A stretch of DNA of 64,000 nucleotides from assembly GCA_902587325.1 (NCBI GenBank), contig CACIKV010000006.1, positions 16,028-80,027 on the forward strand. Reading direction: 5' to 3'. A program made the translations under genes and the position numbers. Positions 30,650-47,262 of the stretch are shown piece after piece. The stretch comes from an uncultured Bacteroidota bacterium. Its GTDB lineage: Bacteria; Bacteroidota; Bacteroidia; Flavobacteriales; Flavobacteriaceae. Under the pieces are notes generated by a model. The model did not search any database, was not told where the DNA came from, and saw nothing but the letters and a program-made list of their open reading frames with translations. Each line of letters begins with the position of its first letter. Position 1 is the first letter of the stretch.

Positions 30650-31378
30650 TTATTCTGTTCTAAAGGAAAAAACTATAGAGTAACTAGTATTAGACCCGTC
30701 TGAGGTCATTATTCTCCAGTAATAAATAGTTTCAGCATCAACAGCAACTTCTAACTCAGAGTCATCTAACTCTTTGTTGTTATCATTAGGTGTCTGTTTT
30801 CCATCAACTTTATCAATGTAAACAGTGTATTTTAGACCTGTAGAGGTGTCAGGATCTGACCCTGTCCAACTAAGCTTAACTTTTCCTTCGGATGTCCTTG
30901 CAACAGTCGAACCAGATTCTGGTGTTTTTAAATCTGCTGGAAATGGAGCGTAACTAGTCTCACCTGTTCCTGACAAATAAAACTTCCACGTAGCACTTGA
31001 AGCAGTTTGAGTGGTTTCATTATTTTTAGATGTTATTTGCCATGAATAAGGATTTCCTTTATCTAATGCAACAATAGTATTTGTAGATGTTAAACCATTT
31101 TTATTAGTTACCTGATTATTATTCAAGTTTGTAATTTTCAAATCATAAGTATCAGTATTTGCTGATGCAGACCATGTAAACTCAACATTACTCTGGGTAT
31201 CGGAAATACTTGTACCTGTTTCACAAACCTCATTATTAGCTGGCTTAGTTAGGTTAGTAGCACTTGGTGGGTCTGGTTCAGGTGGTGGTGGTGGAGAACC
31301 TCCCCCGTCATCACCAACCCCTCCGCTAGAGCAAGACATTATTAACAAGCTAATAAATAGATAAATTGTTTTTTTCAC
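30650..31378 (-). CDS. surface lipoprotein with two fibronectin III-like domains
   Basis: A 242-aa lipoprotein: signal MKKTIYLFISLLIMSC (Cys16) followed by SSGGVGDDGGG. An S/G/D-rich stretch after the Cys is typical of Bacteroidota surface-exposed lipoproteins. A Pro-rich spacer (about residues 29-40) leads to two beta-sandwich repeats (about 40-135 and 145-242) with VEFTWSAS...DTYDLKI and KVKLSWTGSDP...LKYTVYID. These resemble fibronectin III or SusE-type binding modules. The GTG start overlaps the TGA of the giant T9SS gene (GTGA), so the two are translationally coupled. It probably sits on the cell surface beside that protein. Ligand unknown. Confidence 0.75.
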   Translation of the reverse strand: MKKTIYLFISLLIMSCSSGGVGDDGGGSPPPPPEPDPPSATNLTKPANNEVCETGTSISDTQSNVEFTWSASANTDTYDLKITNLNNNQVTNKNGLTSTNTIVALDKGNPYSWQITSKNNETTQTASSATWKFYLSGTGETSYAPFPADLKTPESGSTVARTSEGKVKLSWTGSDPDTSTGLKYTVYIDKVDGKQTPNDNNKELDDSELEVAVDAETIYYWRIMTSDGSNTSYSIVFSFRTE

Positions 31379-34300
31379 TCTCTAATAATTTTAAAGGTTT
31401 TTCTAACTGTTTTACTTTCCATAACTACCACATAAGTGCCTGTCTGTTGTTTTGACAAGTCAATCTGTGTTTTTCTAGTTATATCTTCTATTGTTTGTTC
31501 TTGTGTATATACTAATGCACCTGCAGTAGTAAATACACTTACTTTTACTTGTTGATCCTTCCCGCCTACATGAACTTTAACATCATTATCTGTAGGATTA
31601 GGATAATAATGGATGTCCTCCGATACAAACACCTTCTGCTCTATTGACCCTTGACATTCTAAGTCCGTATATACTTTTATAATACTTAAACCTGTATCAA
31701 GCTCTGTAGTGAAGCTACTTGAACTCACTGTAGATCTCTTACCATTAATCTCCACATTATAAACATTAGATCCACTCATCGTTATACTAACCTTCTTGTC
31801 ATCCTCATCTACACTTACAAAAGCATTTAACTTCTCAGGCTCCCCAACAACTACATCAAAACACTGCTCATAACTTGACTGACCATCTACTTTAAAACAT
31901 ACCGTATATGTCCCCTTAGCAAGACCCGATACTGACGCTGTTTTACTGTCTCCAGTAATCGTAACATTATCCTTACCAGTTATGGTAACTGTATAATCCA
32001 CTGTAGCATCCTCCACACTTAAATTAATCATACCATCACTATTACCAATACAAGTAGTTTTAGCAACTTCCACTTTAAAGTTAGAAACCGGCATAGTAAA
32101 CACCTCACAACCATTTACATCAACCTTAACACCAGAAGGTGTGTTTGGACAATTATCATTTGAATTAATAACACCATCACCATCAGTGTCAATATTGGAA
32201 CTAACATCATCTTCAGTAACTGTAAACTCTCCTTCATCACTAAAAACAGAGCCAATAAAAGATGCATCAATTGCTTGTACCGAGTAATAATATTTACCTG
32301 GGCTTAGAGCCAGTTTCCATTTTAAATTATGTTCAGCATTTCCTTTTGATGGAGTTTTTCTAAAACCAGTCTCAGCAGATGCATTTGCTGACATGACATC
32401 TGAATCACCGGGACTAGTTCCAACTCTGACTGAATATGTTAATCCTTCAGGTCCTGTAAAATCATCTTTAGCTTGTCCCCAAGAAAGTTCCACTAAAATC
32501 TTACCATCTAATACATCTTGATCCGTTATCTTACTCACTGACTCGATAGGTGGCGCATCAGGCGGATTGTTTTTTACAAATTTAGAAGTATTTCTAGCAC
32601 CCTGTGCTGTACTTTGTTTAATAATAATTCCAGTTGAATTATTATTAACATTGTTGACAAGTTCCGCTGATTCTGATCTTACATTCAAATATGTATTTAT
32701 AACATGAAATTTATCATTATCTTTTTTTGTTCCTGATAAAACAAAATCTAAATCACCATCACCATCAATATCTCCAAACTCAACATCAGCATCAATTATA
32801 TTACCAATATCAAATGAACTTTGTACATAATTTTTTGCATTATTATCGAACTCCCTAAGCTCCGAAATTTTTCCTGAGCCTGATTGAACTCCAGAATATA
32901 GCAAATCAGAGTAACCGTCTCCATTAAAATCACCAAATTCCACTTTACTTAATCTTATTCCTGGAATATTGGTTTCAACTTTAGGCCATTCTTTTATAGT
33001 ATCCCTAACTTTATTTTCATAAATCTCGAAAACATCACCATTAAAGCTAGTCCCTGTTATAATCACATCCAAATCGCCATCATTTTCCATATCAAAGAAA
33101 TTAACGCTACCATCTCTAGATGCTCCTAATACATTATCAGTTACTTGTAATTTATAATCATTCGAGCCTGATTCTGTGATATTATCATAAATGAATGTTT
33201 GTAGACCATTAGAAGCATCAAAACCAGAAATAACAACATCTACATCTTGATCATTATCATAGTCACCTATATCAAATGATGAGTTTGTTAATGCTGTAAT
33301 TTGATCTGATATATCAGTTTGTTCAAATGAATTTGAATCCTTGATATAAGTATAAATAATAATTTTAGGTTTTCCTGAGGTGGAATTATTACTTGTTAAA
33401 CCAATTTGAACTATTTCTGACTTACCATCATTATTAAGGTCTGCAATTTTAATTTTACCCTCAAAAAGTCCATCACCAAGTCTTATTTGATCATAAATTA
33501 AAGTTTCCTCGTTTAAATTGCTAGATCCTCCGTCAACTGGTGCTTTACCAAAATGTAAAAATAAATCATTTAAATTAGGAGACTCACCATAAACAACCCC
33601 ATCAGCAGCAAATCTATTAATTATTACATCGGGATAATTATCGTCATTTATATTACCTACTTGAATGTCTGTCACATCATGTATACTCAAATTTGATAAC
33701 GAGTTTTCTGTTTTTCTCTCCCTATCAAACCTAATCAATCTCTTCTCTTCAGCATCAAACTTATGTGATGTCAAGAAATTATTATCATAAATTGTTCCCC
33801 ATTCGTTTCTCCATTTAACTTCCGATCCATAAATCAAATCTAAGTCGTCGTCATTATCCAAATCTGCTAGTTTTACAACAGGTTTTTCGAGCCCAGCTAT
33901 ATTTCGATCAACAATACCACCTTGATTTAATTTTTTCCATTCATAAGCTAATGTAAATTGAACCTCTTGTGAAAATTTACTTGCTTTTACACCTGGATCT
34001 ATAGACTGAGCAGACAAGTAATAATTTCCCGGAAAGAGATTTGTCTGAAATTCATTTGTTAAAATTGGAGGAGGAGATGAAATAAGCCTAGACCCCGTTT
34101 CGAGATTACTTAATGTATTTGAAAGTTCAGAACCGCCAGATGAAGTACCAATTCTTAAATTGTATCCTATAGCATTTGAAAAGTCATCAGTTGATTCATC
34201 CCATTTAAATTTAACATTTCCATAACCAAGATCTTCTACTGACAGATTTTTAACATCACTTGGAGGAGAATTTACTTTTGAATTTAGATTAACTTCATAC

Positions 34301-37300
34301 AATATTGTCTCTGCACCATCATCACTCATTCCGGTGATAAATATATCTAGATCTCCATCAGTATCATAATCAACAAACTCAACAGTTGATTCTCTCAATC
34401 CAACAAATTCAAAATCAGACTCTACAATTGTATTGTTTTTTGTAAAAAAGAGTTTTGTTATTGGAGAGCCATCTGCATCCTCCCCTGTATACATGAAATC
34501 ATTTGAACCATCATTATTTATATCTCCTACAGAAATGTCACCATTTTCTAATGCTAATTTTGGTGTATTTGTCTCTCGGTTTAATCCTCCAACTGATCGA
34601 ATTAATGTTCTTAGTTCTCCATTGCTATCTTTACCATTAATTATATAAGATAATTCTTTAGTTTCTTGATTAAAATAAGTTGTTATTGAAGCATTTTTTA
34701 AAGCAAATGGAATATTTTCTTCTACATCCCAATACGGGACATTTCTTCCATCTAATTTTGGTTCGGATGTTATGTACGTATTTAATTTAATTTGAGATCT
34801 TAATTCTCCATTAGTTCTTTCACCAGTAAATATTAAGTCATTATCTGAATCTTGATCAAAATCTGCAATTTCAAGATCACCATGTTTGAATCCACCACCA
34901 GAAAAATAACTTAAATCTTGAACAATAAACTTGTCTTGATTGTCAACTCTTAGGTATAAATATGAAAATCCATTTTCTTGATCATCAATACCGACTAGGG
35001 CTAAATCAATATCACCATCATTATCTAAATCTCCCCAAGACATTTTTGATGCATATGCATTTGGAATCCCCCATTCAAGATTCGATTTTTCAAAAGTTTG
35101 ACCTTCATTTGTGCTTAAATAAATATTAGTTTTAGCCCCGTTATTGTATCCAGCTACTACTAAGTCTAACCAACCATCCTTGTTTAAATCAACCCAAGAC
35201 AAATCACCATCGTAAACTTTTGTCAATTCTTGACTTGTATCTTCAAAAGTTCCTTCATTATTTTTATAAATAGCTGTTACTGCTCCTTCGGTGTTTGACT
35301 GACCCATAATTGCAAGATCCATATCACCATCTCTATCATAATCTCCCCACGAAATAGAGCTTTTTGAAAGTTTAATAAACGGGTTGTCTTTTTTTATAAA
35401 CTCTAAAGTATTGTTTTTTATTGTAATTGTCGATGCCGCAATATTATTTAGATTTGCATTCGTAACAGATGGAGTTAATATTACTGTTTCATCATCTTCT
35501 GCATTTTCAGGAAATTCTTCAATTGCTGATATTTTCATTGTACCTGATGTTTGACCTGCAGGAATTTTAATTTGAGGATGTGTTTTAAGAAATACTACTC
35601 TATCTTTTTTAACATTTTCATCTCTAAAATCGGTTCCATCCTGCTGAGTATCTCTTCCAATAGAAAAATATAGTTCATTAGAATTACTGTAAGCTATTCC
35701 TGATATACCTAAATGATAATCAAAATAAGATGAATATTGATTTTGACTAAAAAGCCAATCTAAATTGGTACCACTTGCTAAAGGTTCTCCCTCATCTAAT
35801 TTAAATTCCATTATCATAGCATCTCTGCCACTTAAATTAATTGACATTACTCCACAAACTAAATTTCCTCTATTATTTAGAGTAATCGAAAGACAGCCTG
35901 ATACGCCTAACCCACTTTTATTACCTGTTTGTTTTTCCCATTTACGGATATCAGTATTTTTATTTGATACATACACATTTCCACTTGAATCTAATACTAA
36001 GTCAGTTGGAAAATGAAATTCATTGTCTTCATATAATTCAGTGGTTGAATTTTCTGAGATATTTGATTTATAAACCTTTTTATCATTTCTACTAACAAAA
36101 TAAATATCAGATGTATTTTCTTCAACAAACATCCCAATGCCTTCTTTAGAAACACCAGTATCCAATTTTTCTACAAAAGACCCGTCCAATTTATACTTTA
36201 AAATATGAATGTTATCAAGTGACGCACCATCGAGTTTTACATTGTTTGCCAATAAATAAATATTTTCATTGACAACATGAATACTATTGATTCTTTGACT
36301 TGTTTGATCTGGATTACTAGAGTTTTCGTGACCTAGATCAATAAATATTGATGTTTCTCCATTAGGTTTTCTTTTAATAACTCGAGCATTTCTTGAATCA
36401 GCTACATATAAATTATTATTTGAATCAAAATAAACATCTTCAGGTTGGGATAATTGGTTAGCGGCAGAACCTATACCATTACCTCCTACTGCAATATTAA
36501 AAGTATTTTTTCCATCAAAATCAACGTTATAATCATCATCAAAAGTTGCTGTTCCTGAAATAGTAAATATAACATCAACATCTTTTCCAAATGCACTACT
36601 AATTTCTGCTGTGATTACACTTTTTTCATGTTCAAAAATTTCTTCTTTGTCTACAGTAATTGAGGATAAATCTGGTACATCATCACTTACAAGATTAATC
36701 GTAAGTTTTTGTTCACCGCTTTCAGTAGCATTTGATACAGAGGATACTTCAATAATTACTGTTTCATCAACTTCAATTTCTGAGTCATCAATTGCAGCAA
36801 TAGTTATTGATTTCGATGAGCTTCCAGTTGGAATTGTTATTGTTTCACCTGCACTGTAGTCTGTATCTTTAGTTGCAGTTCCTGAATACTCAAGATTAAC
36901 AGTCACATCACTTGAGTTTGTATTACTCAGTGAAGCAGTTAATTCAACTGAACCTGATAGTTCAGAAAATTCTGATGAACTTGATGATATAGCAACATCA
37001 ACTGTTTTTGAAACACTAAACCAACTTTCATTTCCTTCTACCTGATCATCAGTACCGTCAGCAAGGGAATCGTAAGCTGTAATAGCGTACTCGGTTGAAA
37101 AATCACCATCTGTAAATGTATATGTATTTACATTTCCAAGGTCAATTACAGTGTCATATGAATAACCTGTTGGATTTCCATAATAAAGCTTATAACCTGC
37201 AACATCAGTTTCTAGGTTGGCAGACCATGAAAGAATTATATCATCTCCAGATTTTACTTTAGATAAATTTTGTGGAGGTGTTATAGGTGCATCAATATCT

Positions 37301-38541
37301 AATTCATTTAAAAATGGGTCATAATCAACAGTTCCTTTATCTACGTTGTCATTTGAATCATAAATTAAATCTTGAATTTTACTTTCCGTTGTAGTTCCCC
37401 AGTAATTATTCTCTACAGTCAAATCAGAACTAGATAAATTTTCAATAGAATATAAACTCGAATTAATATTATTATATTCAATTTCTTGATTATTCTTTCC
37501 CTCAATAATTATTGCTTTTCTATTATTAAAGAAAGTGTTTTTTTTGATTTTTGTATTTCCTCCAATATTATAACCAGCTTTTCCAGAAATCTTAATTGCA
37601 TCGATATCTTTTAATTTACTGTAACCATAGAATAAAGATTTATAAATACTATCAGCATTACCAATTGAAATATAATTTTCAGATGAATCAGGGGATGTAA
37701 AAACACTTTTATAAGCAATTAGTTTTGCAGATGGTAAAATAATTTTACTTTCAATAAACTTAGACTTAATTATTTTAAAAACTCCATTCACAGGATTTCC
37801 CATTCCATTCCTTATATTAGAATTATATACGATACTTTCGTTAAATGAGAAGTTAGCAGAACAACAACCCATTGTAATATTAGAATTTTTTATGGTTGAA
37901 CCAATTACACTAATTCCTAAGTTATATGCATCTGAATCGATAATTGAATTATTAATAACACAGTTAGTGAATGTTATAGGTTCACTTCTTGGATAATAAC
38001 CTTTTATTGTCAAATCATCAAATGTTGAATTTTCAAATTTTAACTCAGCAGAAGTTGAATAACCTTTTGTATACAAACCTGCGTTATTAAAATCAGAATA
38101 ACTAACTGTTAATATTCCAGAATTTTTAACACTATCTTGACTATGTTCTGATTCATTAGCTAATTGAATTGCATTTTGAGGACCATTGAATATACAGTAA
38201 GAAATGGAACTGTTTGATAAGTTTGTACTTTTAAACAAAATCATCTGATTGTTAACTTCAGAAGAATTACCATTAAATGTAATTGATGATGAACTATTAC
38301 CATCAGCAACTAAACTACCTTTTATTAAAATTTTATAATCGTCTGTAAAATTAACAACTACACCAGGTTCAATCGTTAGAGTAACACCTTCAGAAACAAG
38401 CACACTTCCTGTTATTATGTATGGACTGTTCGCAAGTGTCCATGTAACATCACTGTTAATAGCGCCTGAAACGTTTGTTTGTGATTTTAAACTTAAAAAA
38501 CAAAAAAAGGTAATTAAAAAAGTTAGTTGTAAAAATCTCAT
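31375..38541 (-). CDS. giant multidomain T9SS-secreted surface protein (beta-helix, Fn3, Calx-beta, NHL, FG-GAP, TSP3)
   Basis: A 2388-aa secreted protein. Approximate layout: Sec signal 1-22; right-handed beta-helix of Asn-rich repeats 40-405; Fn3 415-515; Calx-beta 520-620; a second Calx-beta whose first strands are at 620-680 and last strands at 988-1040, with an NHL-type beta-propeller (repeats like PEDVYFDSNNNLYVAD) between; FG-GAP/VCBS repeats 1055-1420 (SWGDYDRDGDMDLAIMG); Fn3 1425-1535; second FG-GAP block 1540-1950; Fn3 1990-2105; TSP3 repeat DTDGDGVINSNDNCPNTP near 2120; a SprB-like module; and a type A T9SS sorting domain at about 2310-2388 (YYPNPTDNDV... to KTFKIIRE). The Asp-rich repeats should bind calcium. 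ATG 38541 is preferred over GTG 38547. An adhesin or glycan-binding role is inferred. Confidence 0.85.
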   Translation of the reverse strand: MRFLQLTFLITFFCFLSLKSQTNVSGAINSDVTWTLANSPYIITGSVLVSEGVTLTIEPGVVVNFTDDYKILIKGSLVADGNSSSSITFNGNSSEVNNQMILFKSTNLSNSSISYCIFNGPQNAIQLANESEHSQDSVKNSGILTVSYSDFNNAGLYTKGYSTSAELKFENSTFDDLTIKGYYPRSEPITFTNCVINNSIIDSDAYNLGISVIGSTIKNSNITMGCCSANFSFNESIVYNSNIRNGMGNPVNGVFKIIKSKFIESKIILPSAKLIAYKSVFTSPDSSENYISIGNADSIYKSLFYGYSKLKDIDAIKISGKAGYNIGGNTKIKKNTFFNNRKAIIIEGKNNQEIEYNNINSSLYSIENLSSSDLTVENNYWGTTTESKIQDLIYDSNDNVDKGTVDYDPFLNELDIDAPITPPQNLSKVKSGDDIILSWSANLETDVAGYKLYYGNPTGYSYDTVIDLGNVNTYTFTDGDFSTEYAITAYDSLADGTDDQVEGNESWFSVSKTVDVAISSSSSEFSELSGSVELTASLSNTNSSDVTVNLEYSGTATKDTDYSAGETITIPTGSSSKSITIAAIDDSEIEVDETVIIEVSSVSNATESGEQKLTINLVSDDVPDLSSITVDKEEIFEHEKSVITAEISSAFGKDVDVIFTISGTATFDDDYNVDFDGKNTFNIAVGGNGIGSAANQLSQPEDVYFDSNNNLYVADSRNARVIKRKPNGETSIFIDLGHENSSNPDQTSQRINSIHVVNENIYLLANNVKLDGASLDNIHILKYKLDGSFVEKLDTGVSKEGIGMFVEENTSDIYFVSRNDKKVYKSNISENSTTELYEDNEFHFPTDLVLDSSGNVYVSNKNTDIRKWEKQTGNKSGLGVSGCLSITLNNRGNLVCGVMSINLSGRDAMIMEFKLDEGEPLASGTNLDWLFSQNQYSSYFDYHLGISGIAYSNSNELYFSIGRDTQQDGTDFRDENVKKDRVVFLKTHPQIKIPAGQTSGTMKISAIEEFPENAEDDETVILTPSVTNANLNNIAASTITIKNNTLEFIKKDNPFIKLSKSSISWGDYDRDGDMDLAIMGQSNTEGAVTAIYKNNEGTFEDTSQELTKVYDGDLSWVDLNKDGWLDLVVAGYNNGAKTNIYLSTNEGQTFEKSNLEWGIPNAYASKMSWGDLDNDGDIDLALVGIDDQENGFSYLYLRVDNQDKFIVQDLSYFSGGGFKHGDLEIADFDQDSDNDLIFTGERTNGELRSQIKLNTYITSEPKLDGRNVPYWDVEENIPFALKNASITTYFNQETKELSYIINGKDSNGELRTLIRSVGGLNRETNTPKLALENGDISVGDINNDGSNDFMYTGEDADGSPITKLFFTKNNTIVESDFEFVGLRESTVEFVDYDTDGDLDIFITGMSDDGAETILYEVNLNSKVNSPPSDVKNLSVEDLGYGNVKFKWDESTDDFSNAIGYNLRIGTSSGGSELSNTLSNLETGSRLISSPPPILTNEFQTNLFPGNYYLSAQSIDPGVKASKFSQEVQFTLAYEWKKLNQGGIVDRNIAGLEKPVVKLADLDNDDDLDLIYGSEVKWRNEWGTIYDNNFLTSHKFDAEEKRLIRFDRERKTENSLSNLSIHDVTDIQVGNINDDNYPDVIINRFAADGVVYGESPNLNDLFLHFGKAPVDGGSSNLNEETLIYDQIRLGDGLFEGKIKIADLNNDGKSEIVQIGLTSNNSTSGKPKIIIYTYIKDSNSFEQTDISDQITALTNSSFDIGDYDNDQDVDVVISGFDASNGLQTFIYDNITESGSNDYKLQVTDNVLGASRDGSVNFFDMENDGDLDVIITGTSFNGDVFEIYENKVRDTIKEWPKVETNIPGIRLSKVEFGDFNGDGYSDLLYSGVQSGSGKISELREFDNNAKNYVQSSFDIGNIIDADVEFGDIDGDGDLDFVLSGTKKDNDKFHVINTYLNVRSESAELVNNVNNNSTGIIIKQSTAQGARNTSKFVKNNPPDAPPIESVSKITDQDVLDGKILVELSWGQAKDDFTGPEGLTYSVRVGTSPGDSDVMSANASAETGFRKTPSKGNAEHNLKWKLALSPGKYYYSVQAIDASFIGSVFSDEGEFTVTEDDVSSNIDTDGDGVINSNDNCPNTPSGVKVDVNGCEVFTMPVSNFKVEVAKTTCIGNSDGMINLSVEDATVDYTVTITGKDNVTITGDSKTASVSGLAKGTYTVCFKVDGQSSYEQCFDVVVGEPEKLNAFVSVDEDDKKVSITMSGSNVYNVEINGKRSTVSSSSFTTELDTGLSIIKVYTDLECQGSIEQKVFVSEDIHYYPNPTDNDVKVHVGGKDQQVKVSVFTTAGALVYTQEQTIEDITRKTQIDLSKQQTGTYVVVMESKTVRKTFKIIRE

Positions 38542-38583
38542 TATCACTAAAATACAGTTTTTTTTATATTTTTCAGTGATAAT
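38540..38583. repeat. inverted repeat over the start of the giant T9SS gene
   Basis: Perfect 9-bp arms ATTATCACT (38540-38548) and AGTGATAAT (38575-38583) with a 26-bp AT-rich spacer. The inner arm covers the start codon and the outer arm lies upstream of a TATTTTAG promoter-like box on the minus strand. It could be an operator or an mRNA hairpin; nothing proves either. Confidence 0.45.
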
Positions 38584-44143: not shown

Positions 44144-45419
44144 TACTATTTATTCTTATGGATACAGCATTTTTGTGAGCATCTAAACCTTCATGTTCTG
44201 CCATAGTTTCAACGGCGCTTGAAATTGATTTTAATCCAAATTTTGTAATTTTTTGAAAAGTTATTGTTTTCAAAAAACTGTCTGTATTTACTCCACTATA
44301 TTGTTTAGCATAACCATTTGTTGGTAGTGTGTGGTTTGTACCAGAAGCATAATCACCTGCACTTTCTGGAGTATAATTGCCTAAAAAGACAGATCCTGCA
44401 TTTACAAGCTTAGAAATACAATAATCTTCATTTTTAACATTAATTATATAATGCTCAGGCGCATAGTCATTTATAAAATCTAAAGCATCATCAATTAAAT
44501 TAAAAAAAACAGACTTTGAATTTTTTAATGATTCATTAATTATATTAATTCGTTCAAGTTTTTTCTTTTGAATATCAATTTCATTGTTAATATCATTAAT
44601 TATTTTTTTTGAATTACTAACTAATATAACTTGGCTATCACAACCGTGTTCAGCCTGTGATAACAAATCAGATGCTACAAACTTAGGATTTGCAGATTCA
44701 TCTGCTAAAACTAGTAATTCACTTGGCCCTGCTGGCATATCAATTGAAACTCCAAAATTCATTGAATATTTTTTAGCAATTGTTACATATTGATTGCCGG
44801 GTCCAAATATTTTATTAACCATTGGTATGGTCTTCGTTCCTAATGTCATTGCTGCTATAGCTTGTGATCCTCCAACTTTAAAAATATTTTTTATTTTACA
44901 AATTTTACACACATATAATATTTCAACAGGAATTTCACCGTTTTTATCTGGTGGAGTACATAATATTCTATCTGGACAATTTGCAATTAAAGAAGGTATT
45001 CCTAACATTAATACTGTTGAAAAAAGTGGAGCTGTTCCACCAGGAATATAAAATCCAACTCTCTCAATTGGTCTCTTTTCTTGCCAACAGTTTATACCCT
45101 CATTAATTTTAACTATCTCTTTTTTTTGAATTTGAGATTTATGAAATTTATAAATATTTTTGAAAGCTAAATCTATTGAATCTTTTAGCTTGTGTGAAAT
45201 TATAAATTCAGAATTGGTAATAGATTTTGCCTCTACTTTTATAGTTGCTAGTTCAATATTATCAAATTTTTTTGTGTATTCTATCAACGACTTGTCACCA
45301 TAATTCTTTACATTTTCAAATACTTCCTTAACAACAGTGTGAACCGATTTGTTATCAACATAAGGTCTCTCTGTTAAAGAACACCAAATAGATCTTTTCG
45401 GATTAGTTATTATATTCAT
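44133..45419 (-). CDS. hisD: histidinol dehydrogenase
   Basis: Catalyses the last two steps, histidinol to histidinal to histidine, with two NAD. The 428-aa chain has the family signature over GPGNQYVTIAKK to MPAGPSELLVLAD, the zinc-binding LLSQAEHGCDSQ and the C-terminal NHTLPTNGYAK. The start touches the hisG stop (1-bp overlap at 45419), so translation is likely coupled. Confidence 0.97.
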   Translation of the reverse strand: MNIITNPKRSIWCSLTERPYVDNKSVHTVVKEVFENVKNYGDKSLIEYTKKFDNIELATIKVEAKSITNSEFIISHKLKDSIDLAFKNIYKFHKSQIQKKEIVKINEGINCWQEKRPIERVGFYIPGGTAPLFSTVLMLGIPSLIANCPDRILCTPPDKNGEIPVEILYVCKICKIKNIFKVGGSQAIAAMTLGTKTIPMVNKIFGPGNQYVTIAKKYSMNFGVSIDMPAGPSELLVLADESANPKFVASDLLSQAEHGCDSQVILVSNSKKIINDINNEIDIQKKKLERINIINESLKNSKSVFFNLIDDALDFINDYAPEHYIINVKNEDYCISKLVNAGSVFLGNYTPESAGDYASGTNHTLPTNGYAKQYSGVNTDSFLKTITFQKITKFGLKSISSAVETMAEHEGLDAHKNAVSIRINSNES

Positions 45420-46276
45420 TATAATACCATTTTTTCAATTGGACAAACTAAAATATCTTCAGCACCTGCATCTTTGATTATATCAATTGATTCCCAAAAC
45501 TTATCATCATCGATTACAGTATGTAAAGAAGACCAGCCTTTCATTTCCAATGGAAGAATAGTTGGACTTTTTAAGACAGGTAAAAGTTTTGAAACAGTTT
45601 TTATTTTATCATTTGGAACATTCATTAAAATGTATTTTGATCGTTTTGCTCTCAATACAGAATTGAATCTAAAAATTAATTTGTCAAGTGTTTGTTTTTT
45701 TGATTGATCAAATGAATCTGAATTACATAAGACAGCTTCTGAATTAGATATTGTTAGAATCTCCCTTAAATTATTTTTATAAAGAGTATTTCCTGTTGAA
45801 ACTATATCACATATTGCATCGGACAATCCTATGTTTGGAGCTATTTCCACACTACCATTAATTTTATGAATTTCACAATCAAGATTATTTTTACTTAAAA
45901 ATTTATTTAGAGTATTTGGATATGAAGTTGCAATTTTCATTTTATTTAAGTCACTTATTTTTTCAAATTTCATTTTTTCGGGAACTGCTATAGATACTCT
46001 GCATTTTGAAAAATTAAGTGGCATCAATTCATTTACATTTAATTCGCTTTCATAAATTAAATTTTGTCCAATAATAGCAATATCAACTACACCATCTGAC
46101 AAATATCTAGGTATATCACTATTTCTTAAAAAGTAAATATTCAAGGGGAAGTTTTCACAATTTACCTTTAATTGATCTTTGAAATTTTCAAATTTTATTC
46201 CAGATTTTTCCAGAAGAGAAATTGATTCTTTATTTAATCTTCCAGATTTTTGAATTGCTAATTTTATTTTTTTCAT
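45419..46276 (-). CDS. hisG: ATP phosphoribosyltransferase, long form
   Basis: The first and committed step of histidine synthesis. At 285 aa it is the long (HisG-L) form, with a C-terminal regulatory domain of about 75 residues for feedback inhibition by histidine, so no hisZ is needed. Visible parts are KLAIQKSGRLNKES at the start, the ALIGQNL-type segment IAIIGQNLIYES, the PRPP loop ICDIVSTGNTL, and the regulatory LKSPTILPL. It is the first structural gene after the attenuator, 15 bp downstream of the terminator stem. Confidence 0.96.
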   Translation of the reverse strand: MKKIKLAIQKSGRLNKESISLLEKSGIKFENFKDQLKVNCENFPLNIYFLRNSDIPRYLSDGVVDIAIIGQNLIYESELNVNELMPLNFSKCRVSIAVPEKMKFEKISDLNKMKIATSYPNTLNKFLSKNNLDCEIHKINGSVEIAPNIGLSDAICDIVSTGNTLYKNNLREILTISNSEAVLCNSDSFDQSKKQTLDKLIFRFNSVLRAKRSKYILMNVPNDKIKTVSKLLPVLKSPTILPLEMKGWSSLHTVIDDDKFWESIDIIKDAGAEDILVCPIEKMVL

Positions 46277-46283
46277 TTTATTA

Positions 46284-46318
46284 AATAAAAAAACCCGCTT
46301 GATTTCTCAAACGGGTTT
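46284..46318 (-). terminator. his attenuator terminator hairpin
   Basis: On the minus strand a 12-bp stem, AAACCCGTTTGA against TCAAGCGGGTTT, closes a GAAA tetraloop and runs into a U-rich tract (TTTTTTTATTT). One pair is G:U, which pairs only in the minus-strand RNA and so fixes the orientation. Its 5' arm (CGTTTGAG, 46313 down to 46306) can pair instead with CTCAAGCG in the leader ORF (46358 down to 46351), all 8 positions including one G:U. That alternative would break the terminator. Confidence 0.88.
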
Positions 46319-46340
46319 GTTATAATTAAACACATAATCA

Positions 46341-46400
46341 TTACATATCTCGCTTGAGTATTAAAAATAATGAATGATGATTATGTATAAGTTTTCTCAT
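46341..46400 (-). CDS. hisL: histidine operon leader peptide
   Basis: A 19-codon ORF, MRKLIHNHHSLFLILKRDM, with three His codons in four (codons 6, 8 and 9). It ends 22 bases before the terminator stem of the his operon. The His codons lie in CATAATCA (46385-46378), which pairs perfectly with TGATTATG just after the stop (46340-46333). That hairpin loops out the antiterminator strand. A ribosome stalled on His codons would block it, free CTCAAGCG and prevent termination; fast translation would allow termination. This is the standard amino-acid attenuation layout. A GATATTTG promoter-like box sits 7 bases before the ATG. No database comparison was made. Confidence 0.82.
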   Translation of the reverse strand: MRKLIHNHHSLFLILKRDM

Positions 46401-46407
46401 TTATTTA

Positions 46408-46415
46408 CAAATATC
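46408..46415 (-). promoter_or_regulatory. candidate -7 box for the his operon
   Basis: GATATTTG differs from TAnnTTTG at the first base and lies 7 bases upstream of the leader-peptide ATG. It is placed correctly for a short leader transcript. The -33 element is not evident. Confidence 0.35.
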
Positions 46416-46443: not shown

Positions 46444-47262
46444 TTATTGATTTCCTAAAATAATTGGTAATCCATCACCGCCAGAACCTATTATTACTGT
46501 TTTTGTATTTGGTGATTCAGATAACTGCATTGTAGCTTCTATCCCTTTGTCTCTAAGTATATTAGATGTTAAAGAACTATTTAAAATTCTATTAGCATTG
46601 GCTTTACCTTCAGCATCAATTCTTAATTTTTCAGCCTCTTGTCTAGCTTTTTCTAGTCTAAAAACATATTCCAAAGCTTCTTGCTCCTGAGTTAACTTTC
46701 TTTCAATAGCAGCTTTAATATTTGCAGGAAGAGTTACATCCCTAACAAGCACAGAGTTTATCTGAACATGTTGTTGTTCAACATCCTCAACTAATTGCTC
46801 AAAAATTTCGTTTTGAATAGCATCTCTTTTTGTTGAATAAAGCTGTTCGGGTGTGTATTGACCAACAACACTTCTTGCAACGGCTCTTAGAGAGGGGATA
46901 ATCACAACATTTAGATAATTTGAACCTTTAGTTTGATGAAGCAAACCTAATTCAGCGATGTTTGGTTGATACAAGACGGAAATATCAAGCGATATATCAA
47001 GACCATTTGAAGATAAAACTTGCATTTTACTTTCAAAAACTTCTTGTTGTTTAACATTATATACGAAGACCTTGTTCCAAGGCATAACAATATTTAGACC
47101 TTCGCCTAAAGGCGGTTCGTCAGTTACAACCCCATTTCCAAAGGTTTTAAATAAAACACCTGCTTCACCGTATCCAATATTAACAAAGGTTTTCGCAAGA
47201 AAGATAAATAATAATAGGCCTCCAACTAAAATAGGAAGTCCAAGTTTTTGTAATTTTTCCAT
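46444..47262 (-). CDS. prohibitin-like SPFH/band 7 membrane protein
   Basis: A 272-aa prohibitin-type protein. One N-terminal membrane segment (about residues 10-28), then the SPFH domain (30-190) with VNIGYGEAGVLFKTFGNGV, LDISVLYQP and EQLYSTKRDAIQNEI. A coiled coil rich in Glu, Ala and Arg follows (about 190-245). Such proteins form large membrane rings linked to quality control of membrane proteins. The ending DGLPIILGNQ is typical of bacterial prohibitin homologues. It is the last gene of the lpx run, 13 bp after fabG, and the his attenuator lies just downstream. Confidence 0.88.
   Translation of the reverse strand: MEKLQKLGLPILVGGLLLFIFLAKTFVNIGYGEAGVLFKTFGNGVVTDEPPLGEGLNIVMPWNKVFVYNVKQQEVFESKMQVLSSNGLDISLDISVLYQPNIAELGLLHQTKGSNYLNVVIIPSLRAVARSVVGQYTPEQLYSTKRDAIQNEIFEQLVEDVEQQHVQINSVLVRDVTLPANIKAAIERKLTQEQEALEYVFRLEKARQEAEKLRIDAEGKANANRILNSSLTSNILRDKGIEATMQLSESPNTKTVIIGSGGDGLPIILGNQ

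What the first reader, a model, noticed from the sequence alone, without database searches (positions are those of the whole stretch)
46284..46400. Complete His-codon attenuator in front of the his operon
A 19-codon leader ORF has His-Asn-His-His at codons 6-9. The His codons pair with a sequence just past the stop codon (CATAATCA with TGATTATG). An antiterminator strand (CTCAAGCG) pairs at all 8 positions with the 5' arm of a 12-bp terminator hairpin. A G:U pair fixes the strand. The parts are arranged so that stalling at His codons would free the antiterminator. I know this mechanism best from proteobacteria; a clear case in a small-genome flavobacterium is worth recording because the ORF is below gene-caller size.
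Basis: partly seen in the sequence, partly recalled or inferred. Interest (0 to 1): 0.75.

Follow-up and report, generated by a model that had tools for sequence, protein, structure and literature searches.

The report
Histidine-sensing RNA switch before his operon
A 19-codon reading frame with a cluster of histidine codons and a terminator hairpin sit directly in front of this flavobacterium's histidine-making genes, and together they are predicted to act as a switch that would turn the genes on when histidine runs short; a matching leader sits in front of hisG in all 103 hisG-bearing genomes tested from its family.

Summary
Leader ORF 46400-46341(-), MRKLIHNHHSLFLILKRDM, precedes a 12-bp terminator (46318-46291) that ends 14 nt before hisG; an 8-nt strand in the ORF pairs with the terminator's 5' arm. 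Of 241 hisG upstream regions from class Bacteroidia, 219 carry such a His-cluster ORF (controls 0-6). In 120 genomes of the family a leader model hits all 103 with hisG, always just upstream, none of 16 without, and one orphan. In relatives the helices show compensatory changes. Folding with a placed ribosome predicts the antiterminator for a stall at His and not for a ribosome at the stop codon; at equilibrium the terminator always wins, so antitermination would have to be kinetic. Not new to biology: a Flavobacterium psychrophilum transcriptome paper already names a conserved hisG 5' element and leader-peptide attenuation; no Rfam family matches. Unexpected extra, absent from the window: 115 of 207 relatives' loci have a strand (F) before hisG complementary to the terminator loop, and it co-varies with it. 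Its function is unknown; a second, translational layer is my inference.

The parts
46408..46415 (-). GATATTTG, probable -7 promoter element (one mismatch to TAnnTTTG), 7 nt before the leader start
   Evidence: sequence; exact TANNTTTG within 60 nt upstream of the leader ATG in 146 of 193 loci, shuffles 12.8 on average (max 18); the window and four of five same-genus loci have it with one mismatch, 5-9 nt upstream; L007 does not
46341..46400 (-). leader ORF MRKLIHNHHSLFLILKRDM plus stop; His at codons 6, 8, 9
   Evidence: His-cluster ORF in 219 of 241 hisG loci
46377..46388 (-). arm A, codons 5-8 (Ile-His-Asn-His), pairs with arm C
   Evidence: in relatives a helix over the His codons has compensatory changes
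46351..46358 (-). arm B, CTCAAGCG, antiterminator strand in codons 15-17
   Evidence: B:D 93.6% paired, 21 double-change cells against 5.9 in shuffles, in 49 selected relatives
46330..46341 (-). arm C, from the last base of the stop codon on, pairs with A
46307..46318 (-). arm D, 5' arm of the terminator; 46313-46306 also pairs with B
46291..46302 (-). arm E, 3' arm of the terminator
46287..46293 (-). T-run of the intrinsic terminator; predicted 3' end of the short transcript near here
45419..46276 (-). hisG, first gene of the operon; starts 14 nt after the terminator stem
   Evidence: TIGR00070
39379..45419 (-). hisD, hisC, hisB, hisH, hisA, hisF, hisIE
   Evidence: NCBIfam equivalogs

Best explanation
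The leader is predicted to be a ribosome-mediated transcription attenuator: when charged tRNA-His is scarce, a ribosome would stall at codons 6-9 and leave strand B free to pair with D, so that the terminator D:E likely fails and RNA polymerase reads on into hisG. When histidine is ample the ribosome would reach the stop codon and cover B, and D would pair with E and end transcription near 46287. Shown: the parts, their positions, their conservation, and their co-variation in relatives. Inferred: stalling, termination, and the response to histidine. Because D:E is predicted to win at equilibrium in every state, the choice would have to be made kinetically, in the short time between the making of D and of E. 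In many relatives, but not in the window, a further strand F after the terminator is complementary to the terminator loop; what it does is not known.
For: Anatomy, fold z -3.99. His-cluster ORF in 219 of 241 hisG loci against 0-6 in controls; terminator score >=24 in 220 of 244 against 1 in shuffles (68 on the reverse complement, where a symmetric hairpin beside A-runs scores too). Leader model R1 hits 104 of 120 family genomes and hisG is in 103 of the same 120; all 103 have both on the same strand with 8-132 nt from the hit to the first matched HisG residue; the 16 without a hit lack hisG (at least 8 of the 103 genomes also gave sequences to the model). Ribosome placement, 190 loci: mean probability of B:D before E is made 0.91 with a stall at the first His, 0.75 at the last His, 0.31 without ribosome, 0.03 with a ribosome at the stop. 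Co-variation in 49 selected relatives: B:D and A:C plus D:E, no shuffle of 500 reaching the counts of double-change cells. Promoter motif in front of the leader. A sibling Trp leader stands before trpE in the same genome (L267).
Against: At full length the terminator wins in every ribosome state (0.94-0.97 in the window, means 0.94-0.96 in 190 loci), so thermodynamics alone gives no switch. In the window the antiterminator is predicted even without a ribosome, so arm A:C is not shown to do anything there. B was chosen as the best complement of D, which favours it; B reaches p<=0.05 in 125 of 190 loci only. 14 of 244 loci show no His-cluster ORF by the script, two of them cut by the contig end; L009 has no T-run. 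No expression data. The Rfam His_leader model does not match. Two 0.6-Mb genomes keep hisG and a hairpin but no His ORF (L055, L056).
Confidence: 0.88

Rival explanations
1. The hairpin acts on translation rather than, or as well as, on transcription: it ends 14 nt before the hisG start, and would hinder ribosome loading unless B:D takes its place.
For: In the window genus the terminator ends 14-15 nt before hisG in L002-L007; in relatives strand F ends 13-18 nt before it in 64 of 103 loci of one subset. PMC6847099 passages: initiation in F. johnsoniae is tuned by structure, with -20 to +20 generally less paired.
Against: The T-run directly after the stem is what transcription termination needs. 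Nothing here measures translation.
Confidence: 0.15
2. An ordinary terminator of the upstream gene with a chance ORF; no regulation of hisG.
For: The upstream gene (46444-47262) lies on the same strand and the spacer is short.
Against: His clusters at this place in 219 of 241 loci, B:D and A:C co-variation, a promoter motif between the upstream gene and the leader, and co-occurrence with hisG in 103 of 103 genomes.
Confidence: 0.03
3. A T-box, riboswitch or protein-bound leader senses histidine.
For: It is a structured 5' region before an amino-acid operon.
Against: No Rfam family reaches its cut-off in the window or in 12 loci; weak matches in the region are far below cut-off. The His codons would be unexplained.
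Confidence: 0.02

Closest known systems
his operon leader of Enterobacteriaceae (Rfam RF00514 His_leader)
   Same: Leader ORF with His codons, terminator and antiterminator sharing one strand, in front of hisG (enterobacterial details recalled)
   Different: No match to the RF00514 model in the window genome; 0 of 60 relatives reach the cut-off, 1 of 60 has E<=0.001. Here the antiterminator is a single 8-nt strand inside the last codons of the ORF; the enterobacterial segments were not compared
Bacteroid-trp (Rfam RF01692), Trp leader of Bacteroidetes
   Same: Same phylum, short leader ORF with a codon run, terminator close to the first gene; 9 of 60 relatives over cut-off; table entry seen in PMC2864571 (passages)
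   Different: Trp codons before trpE; the window region does not match the model
5' element upstream of hisG in Flavobacterium psychrophilum and other Flavobacteriaceae (PMC9723704)
   Same: Very likely the same element: structured 5' region, conserved in other genera, no Rfam hit; the paper also reports strong clues for leader-peptide attenuation before amino-acid operons (section 19 read)
   Different: The section read gives no anatomy, His codons, range beyond the family or post-terminator strand; the supplement could not be read here
Sinorhizobium meliloti metA SAM-II riboswitch and rnTrpL attenuator RNA
   Same: Leaders in which a terminator is followed by a further, post-transcriptional layer: metA from the abstract and outline of PMC9373788; rnTrpL as a trans-acting RNA is recalled, only listings seen
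   Different: Different sensor (metA) and different target; neither has a strand co-varying with the terminator loop as far as I saw

Membership tests
Ribosome-mediated amino-acid attenuator (functional class) | Short ORF with clustered codons of the regulated amino acid upstream of its biosynthetic operon | tested here: met
Ribosome-mediated amino-acid attenuator (functional class) | Intrinsic terminator between leader and first gene | tested here: met
Ribosome-mediated amino-acid attenuator (functional class) | Antiterminator excluding the terminator, supported by co-variation | tested here: met
   (49 selected relatives without the window; window genus not tested for co-variation)
Ribosome-mediated amino-acid attenuator (functional class) | Stall and stop positions of the ribosome give opposite structures | tested here: met
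   in nascent RNA before the 3' arm is made; not so at equilibrium of the full leader
Ribosome-mediated amino-acid attenuator (functional class) | Transcript level responds to charged tRNA through translation of the leader | not testable with these tools
   needs RNA measurements
Rfam RF00514 His_leader | Match to the family's covariance model | tested here: not met
Rfam RF01692 Bacteroid-trp | Match to the model and Trp codons | tested here: not met
   His codons instead of Trp
T-box leader | Match to a T-box model | tested here: not met
   no Rfam match at cut-off

The most novel reading that the evidence does not exclude
In most Flavobacteriales and some other Bacteroidia the his attenuator is a two-storey switch: a strand F, typically 13-18 nt before hisG, pairs with the loop of the terminator hairpin, so that the hairpin ends transcription first and, on messages that got past it, gates translation of hisG; the window's lineage has fused both storeys by placing the terminator itself 14 nt before the start codon.
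Probability: 0.35. Interest if true: 0.75.

Novelty: new member of a known kind. Interest (0 to 1): 0.47.

Why it matters
It shows that a His-codon attenuator is the usual arrangement before hisG in the family and in the class sampled here, in bacteria that lack Shine-Dalgarno sequences (PMC6847099 abstract) and whose coupling of ribosome and polymerase is, as far as I know, little studied; a working attenuator would be direct evidence for such coupling. The element has no Rfam family and its ORF is too short for most gene callers. The post-terminator strand F is a co-varying part that the textbook model of attenuation, as I recall it, does not contain.

Tried and rejected
F as an anti-start strand: single-sequence folds often pair F with the hisG start (ATGAGTAAA), and start-by-F pairing exceeds permutation (z 8.4). 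Rejected as the main partner, because among loci with the same terminator apex F does not follow the start (z 0.6), while among loci with the same start it follows the apex (z 9.4, 86 loci).

F always pairs with the 5' arm: not so. One Flavobacterium group (L085, L087, L091, L095, L098, L103, L105, L118, L128, L131) and a few others (L021, L027, L050) pair loop plus 3' arm better. This counts against a simple lock in which F merely competes with B for D.

F in other attenuators: two trp loci read by eye show none, and in 22 of 30 trpE loci the terminator picked by the script ends 6-30 nt before the start, leaving little room (which ran no pairing test and picked a farther hairpin or a wrong start in the other 8). 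First regex for hisG starts missed L049, L107, L117, L123, L141; replaced by tblastn, 244 of 246 loci placed, L208 and L247 lost. An ilvD scan was not taken further. Of nine secondary hits of model R1 (E 1e-6 to 9e-4) six were looked at: L342, L344, L345, L346 and L348 carry no His-cluster leader; L347 has a 15-codon ORF with His at codons 5, 8, 9 before a hairpin and T-run, but the script found no same-strand ORF of 60 codons in the 1.8 kb behind it. A taxonomy look-up gave nothing.

Full report
What is in the window. On the minus strand, between an upstream gene without an NCBIfam match at 1e-10 (46444-47262) and hisG (46276-45419), lies a 19-codon ORF at 46400-46341, MRKLIHNHHSLFLILKRDM. 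Its His codons are 6, 8 and 9. A 12-bp helix joins 46388-46377 (codons 5-8) with 46341-46330 (just past the stop). A 12-bp stem with loop GAAA and a T-run (46318-46287) follows; the stem ends 14 nt before hisG. CTCAAGCG inside codons 15-17 is complementary to CGTTTGAG in the terminator's 5' arm, so A:C and B:D exclude each other as nested helices, and B:D excludes D:E. hisG heads a complete operon hisG-D-C-B-H-A-F-IE. No Rfam family reaches its cut-off in the window.

Chance. The folded leader is 4 standard deviations better than shuffles, with 1 of 200 shuffles as good. The stronger test is comparison. I collected hisG loci from 100 relatives (58 with a match; 29 stretches fetched by hand), 80 titled genome records (the best 80 of 276) and 296 class-level genomes (135 with a match: 27 new loci with the search, 80 stretches fetched already held, 25 genomes not fetched). 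Of 246 loci, 244 gave a hisG start. Of the 241 with at least 250 nt upstream, 219 have an ATG ORF of 8-45 codons with at least 3 His in 7; controls give 6 (reverse strand), 0 of 241 (farther upstream) and 2-5 (five shuffles). Five loci are duplicates and are counted there; they were dropped from then on, which left 215 loci with a good terminator and 207 after removal of identical ones. Fourteen of 244 loci show no such ORF in 400 nt by the script, two of them because the contig ends; L008 among them has two His codons.

Co-occurrence. A covariance model R1 was built from 35 leaders, five of them from the window's genus, the window included. In 120 genomes of the family, one per genus and at least 90% complete besides the window's own, 104 have a hit. 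hisG is in 103 of the same 120. All 103 have a hit on the same strand, 8-132 nt before the first matched HisG residue. The 16 genomes without a hit lack hisG. One genome (G049) has a hit without hisG: an orphan His leader and terminator, now in front of an unrelated ORF. At least 8 of the 103 genomes also contributed to the model. Outside it, two 0.6-Mb genomes of the order (L055, L056) keep a hairpin but no His ORF.

How it likely works. For 190 loci with leader and terminator I blocked a ribosome footprint and folded the nascent RNA up to the terminator loop. Mean probability of B:D is 0.31 without ribosome, 0.91 with a stall at the first His codon, 0.75 at the last, 0.03 with a ribosome at the stop codon. 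In the window the values are 1.0, 1.0, 1.0 and 0.0, so there the stop-codon ribosome, not A:C, makes the difference. In the full leader the terminator has 0.94-0.97 in the window whatever the ribosome does. Antitermination must therefore be kinetic, if it happens. B was picked as the best complement to D, which biases these values upward; by shuffles B is significant in 125 of 190 loci. A TANNTTTG motif, the -7 box of flavobacteria (PMC9723704 passage), stands within 60 nt upstream of the leader ATG in 146 of 193 loci against 12.8 in shuffles; the window and L003-L006 have GATATTTG, one mismatch, 5-9 nt upstream, and L007 does not. This predicts a very short 5' end.

Co-variation. In 49 relatives aligned by sequence alone (A1; chosen for a significant strand F, F position, spacing and leader length, so not a random set, and without the window), B:D is 93.6% paired with 21 double-change cells against 5.9 in shuffles; A:C plus D:E 91.8% with 76 against 24.2; no shuffle of 500 reached either count. 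RNAalifold finds a helix over the His codons and D:E unaided.

In relatives, though not in the window genus, a strand F lies after the terminator and before hisG. It is complementary to the terminator's loop together with, usually, its 5' arm (commonly GTTTGAGTAAA with TTTACTCAAAC). Of 207 non-redundant loci, 153 have at least 35 nt between terminator and hisG, and 114 of these have F at p<=0.05; of the 54 with a shorter gap, 1 does. In the subset made up of the relatives, the titled records and ten family-level loci, 103 of 116 with the longer gap have F, and its 3' end is 13-18 nt before the start codon in 64 of these 103, with a tail to 74 (a few titled records there belong to other orders). 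Eleven further loci from other orders or families of the class have it too, 13-19 nt before the start. F is 89.3% paired in A1, with 54 double-change cells against 14.6 in shuffles (0 of 500), and pairs at 23-42% when slid by 1-3 columns. The loop positions, which have no partner in D:E, co-vary with F. Own F fits own apex better than other loci's F does (z 20.9 by permutation; above the mean of the others in 121 of 153); relatedness is not removed by that test. F:start, the rival pairing, is 80.5% paired with 26 against 12.7 double-change cells but loses in the stratified test. Two facts hinder a simple function: D:E beats F:apex in 13 of the 15 F-bearing loci folded (L058 favours F, L036 is split), and one Flavobacterium group pairs F with the 3' arm instead. 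In the window genus the terminator itself ends 14-15 nt from hisG, about where F ends in relatives. I infer, without proof, a post-transcriptional role at the hisG start; PMC6847099 (passages) reports that structure around -20 to +20 tunes initiation in F. johnsoniae. Trans action by the terminated leader RNA, as I recall it for rnTrpL (listings only), is not excluded.

What is already in print. PMC9723704 (section 19 read whole; other passages) reports, in F. psychrophilum, strong clues for leader-peptide attenuation before amino-acid operons and names a structured 5' element upstream of hisG, present in other genera of Flavobacteriaceae, without Rfam hits. PMC2864571 (passages) lists Bacteroid-trp, RF01692, which I find over cut-off in 9 of 60 relatives. 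PMC8305728 (passages) treats his genes of the phylum and in the passages seen describes attenuation for S. enterica and E. coli only. PMC7366714 (passages) mentions ORFs reminiscent of leader peptides in Bacteroides. Lopatovskaya 2010, cited in PMC4833913, surveyed attenuation in bacteria; I did not see its text. In ten searches of the open library, of which I saw listings and the papers named here, I found no description of strand F or of the class-wide range; subscription papers and supplements were not searched.

Verdict. The window holds a well-formed His attenuator, one of a family found before every hisG examined in its bacterial family and common in the class. As a mechanism it is known; as a catalogued family it is missing; strand F is the open question.

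Noticed in passing
L267 (window genome, contig C12, upstream of trpE): A Trp leader MKNYYKFWWQRYINRLLSL with terminator 10 nt before trpE stands in the same genome; RF01692 gave no match there.
   Followed up: partly
L341 (G049 contig C11, 14399-14521): Orphan His attenuator in a genome without hisG; the next ORF looks like a CorA-type transporter by eye. A relic of a lost his operon, or re-use.
   Followed up: partly
L347 (G424 contig C2, 223629-223737, minus strand): A second hit of the leader model: 15-codon ORF with His at codons 5, 8, 9, then hairpin and T-run, with no same-strand ORF of 60 codons found behind it. Chance or relic.
   Followed up: no
L055, L056 (0.6-Mb genomes): hisG keeps a terminator-like hairpin 20-23 nt upstream but no His-cluster ORF.
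   Followed up: no
same-genus genomes G001-G022: hisG found in only 6 of 22 (many are incomplete), so histidine synthesis looks patchy in the genus; the five of these loci whose upstream region was held (L003-L007), and the window, keep the attenuator.
   Followed up: no
L288, L295-L297, L299, L300, L302, L303, L306-L310: Window-genus ilvD is preceded by a short hairpin of the type ACTCCAT-TTAT-ATGGAGT, 12-16 nt before the start in 12 of these 13; possibly another attenuator.
   Followed up: no
L009: Relative with His leader and hairpin but without a T-run after it.
   Followed up: no
window 31375-38547 (-): 2390-residue ORF, probably a secreted repeat protein by its look; not analysed.
   Followed up: no
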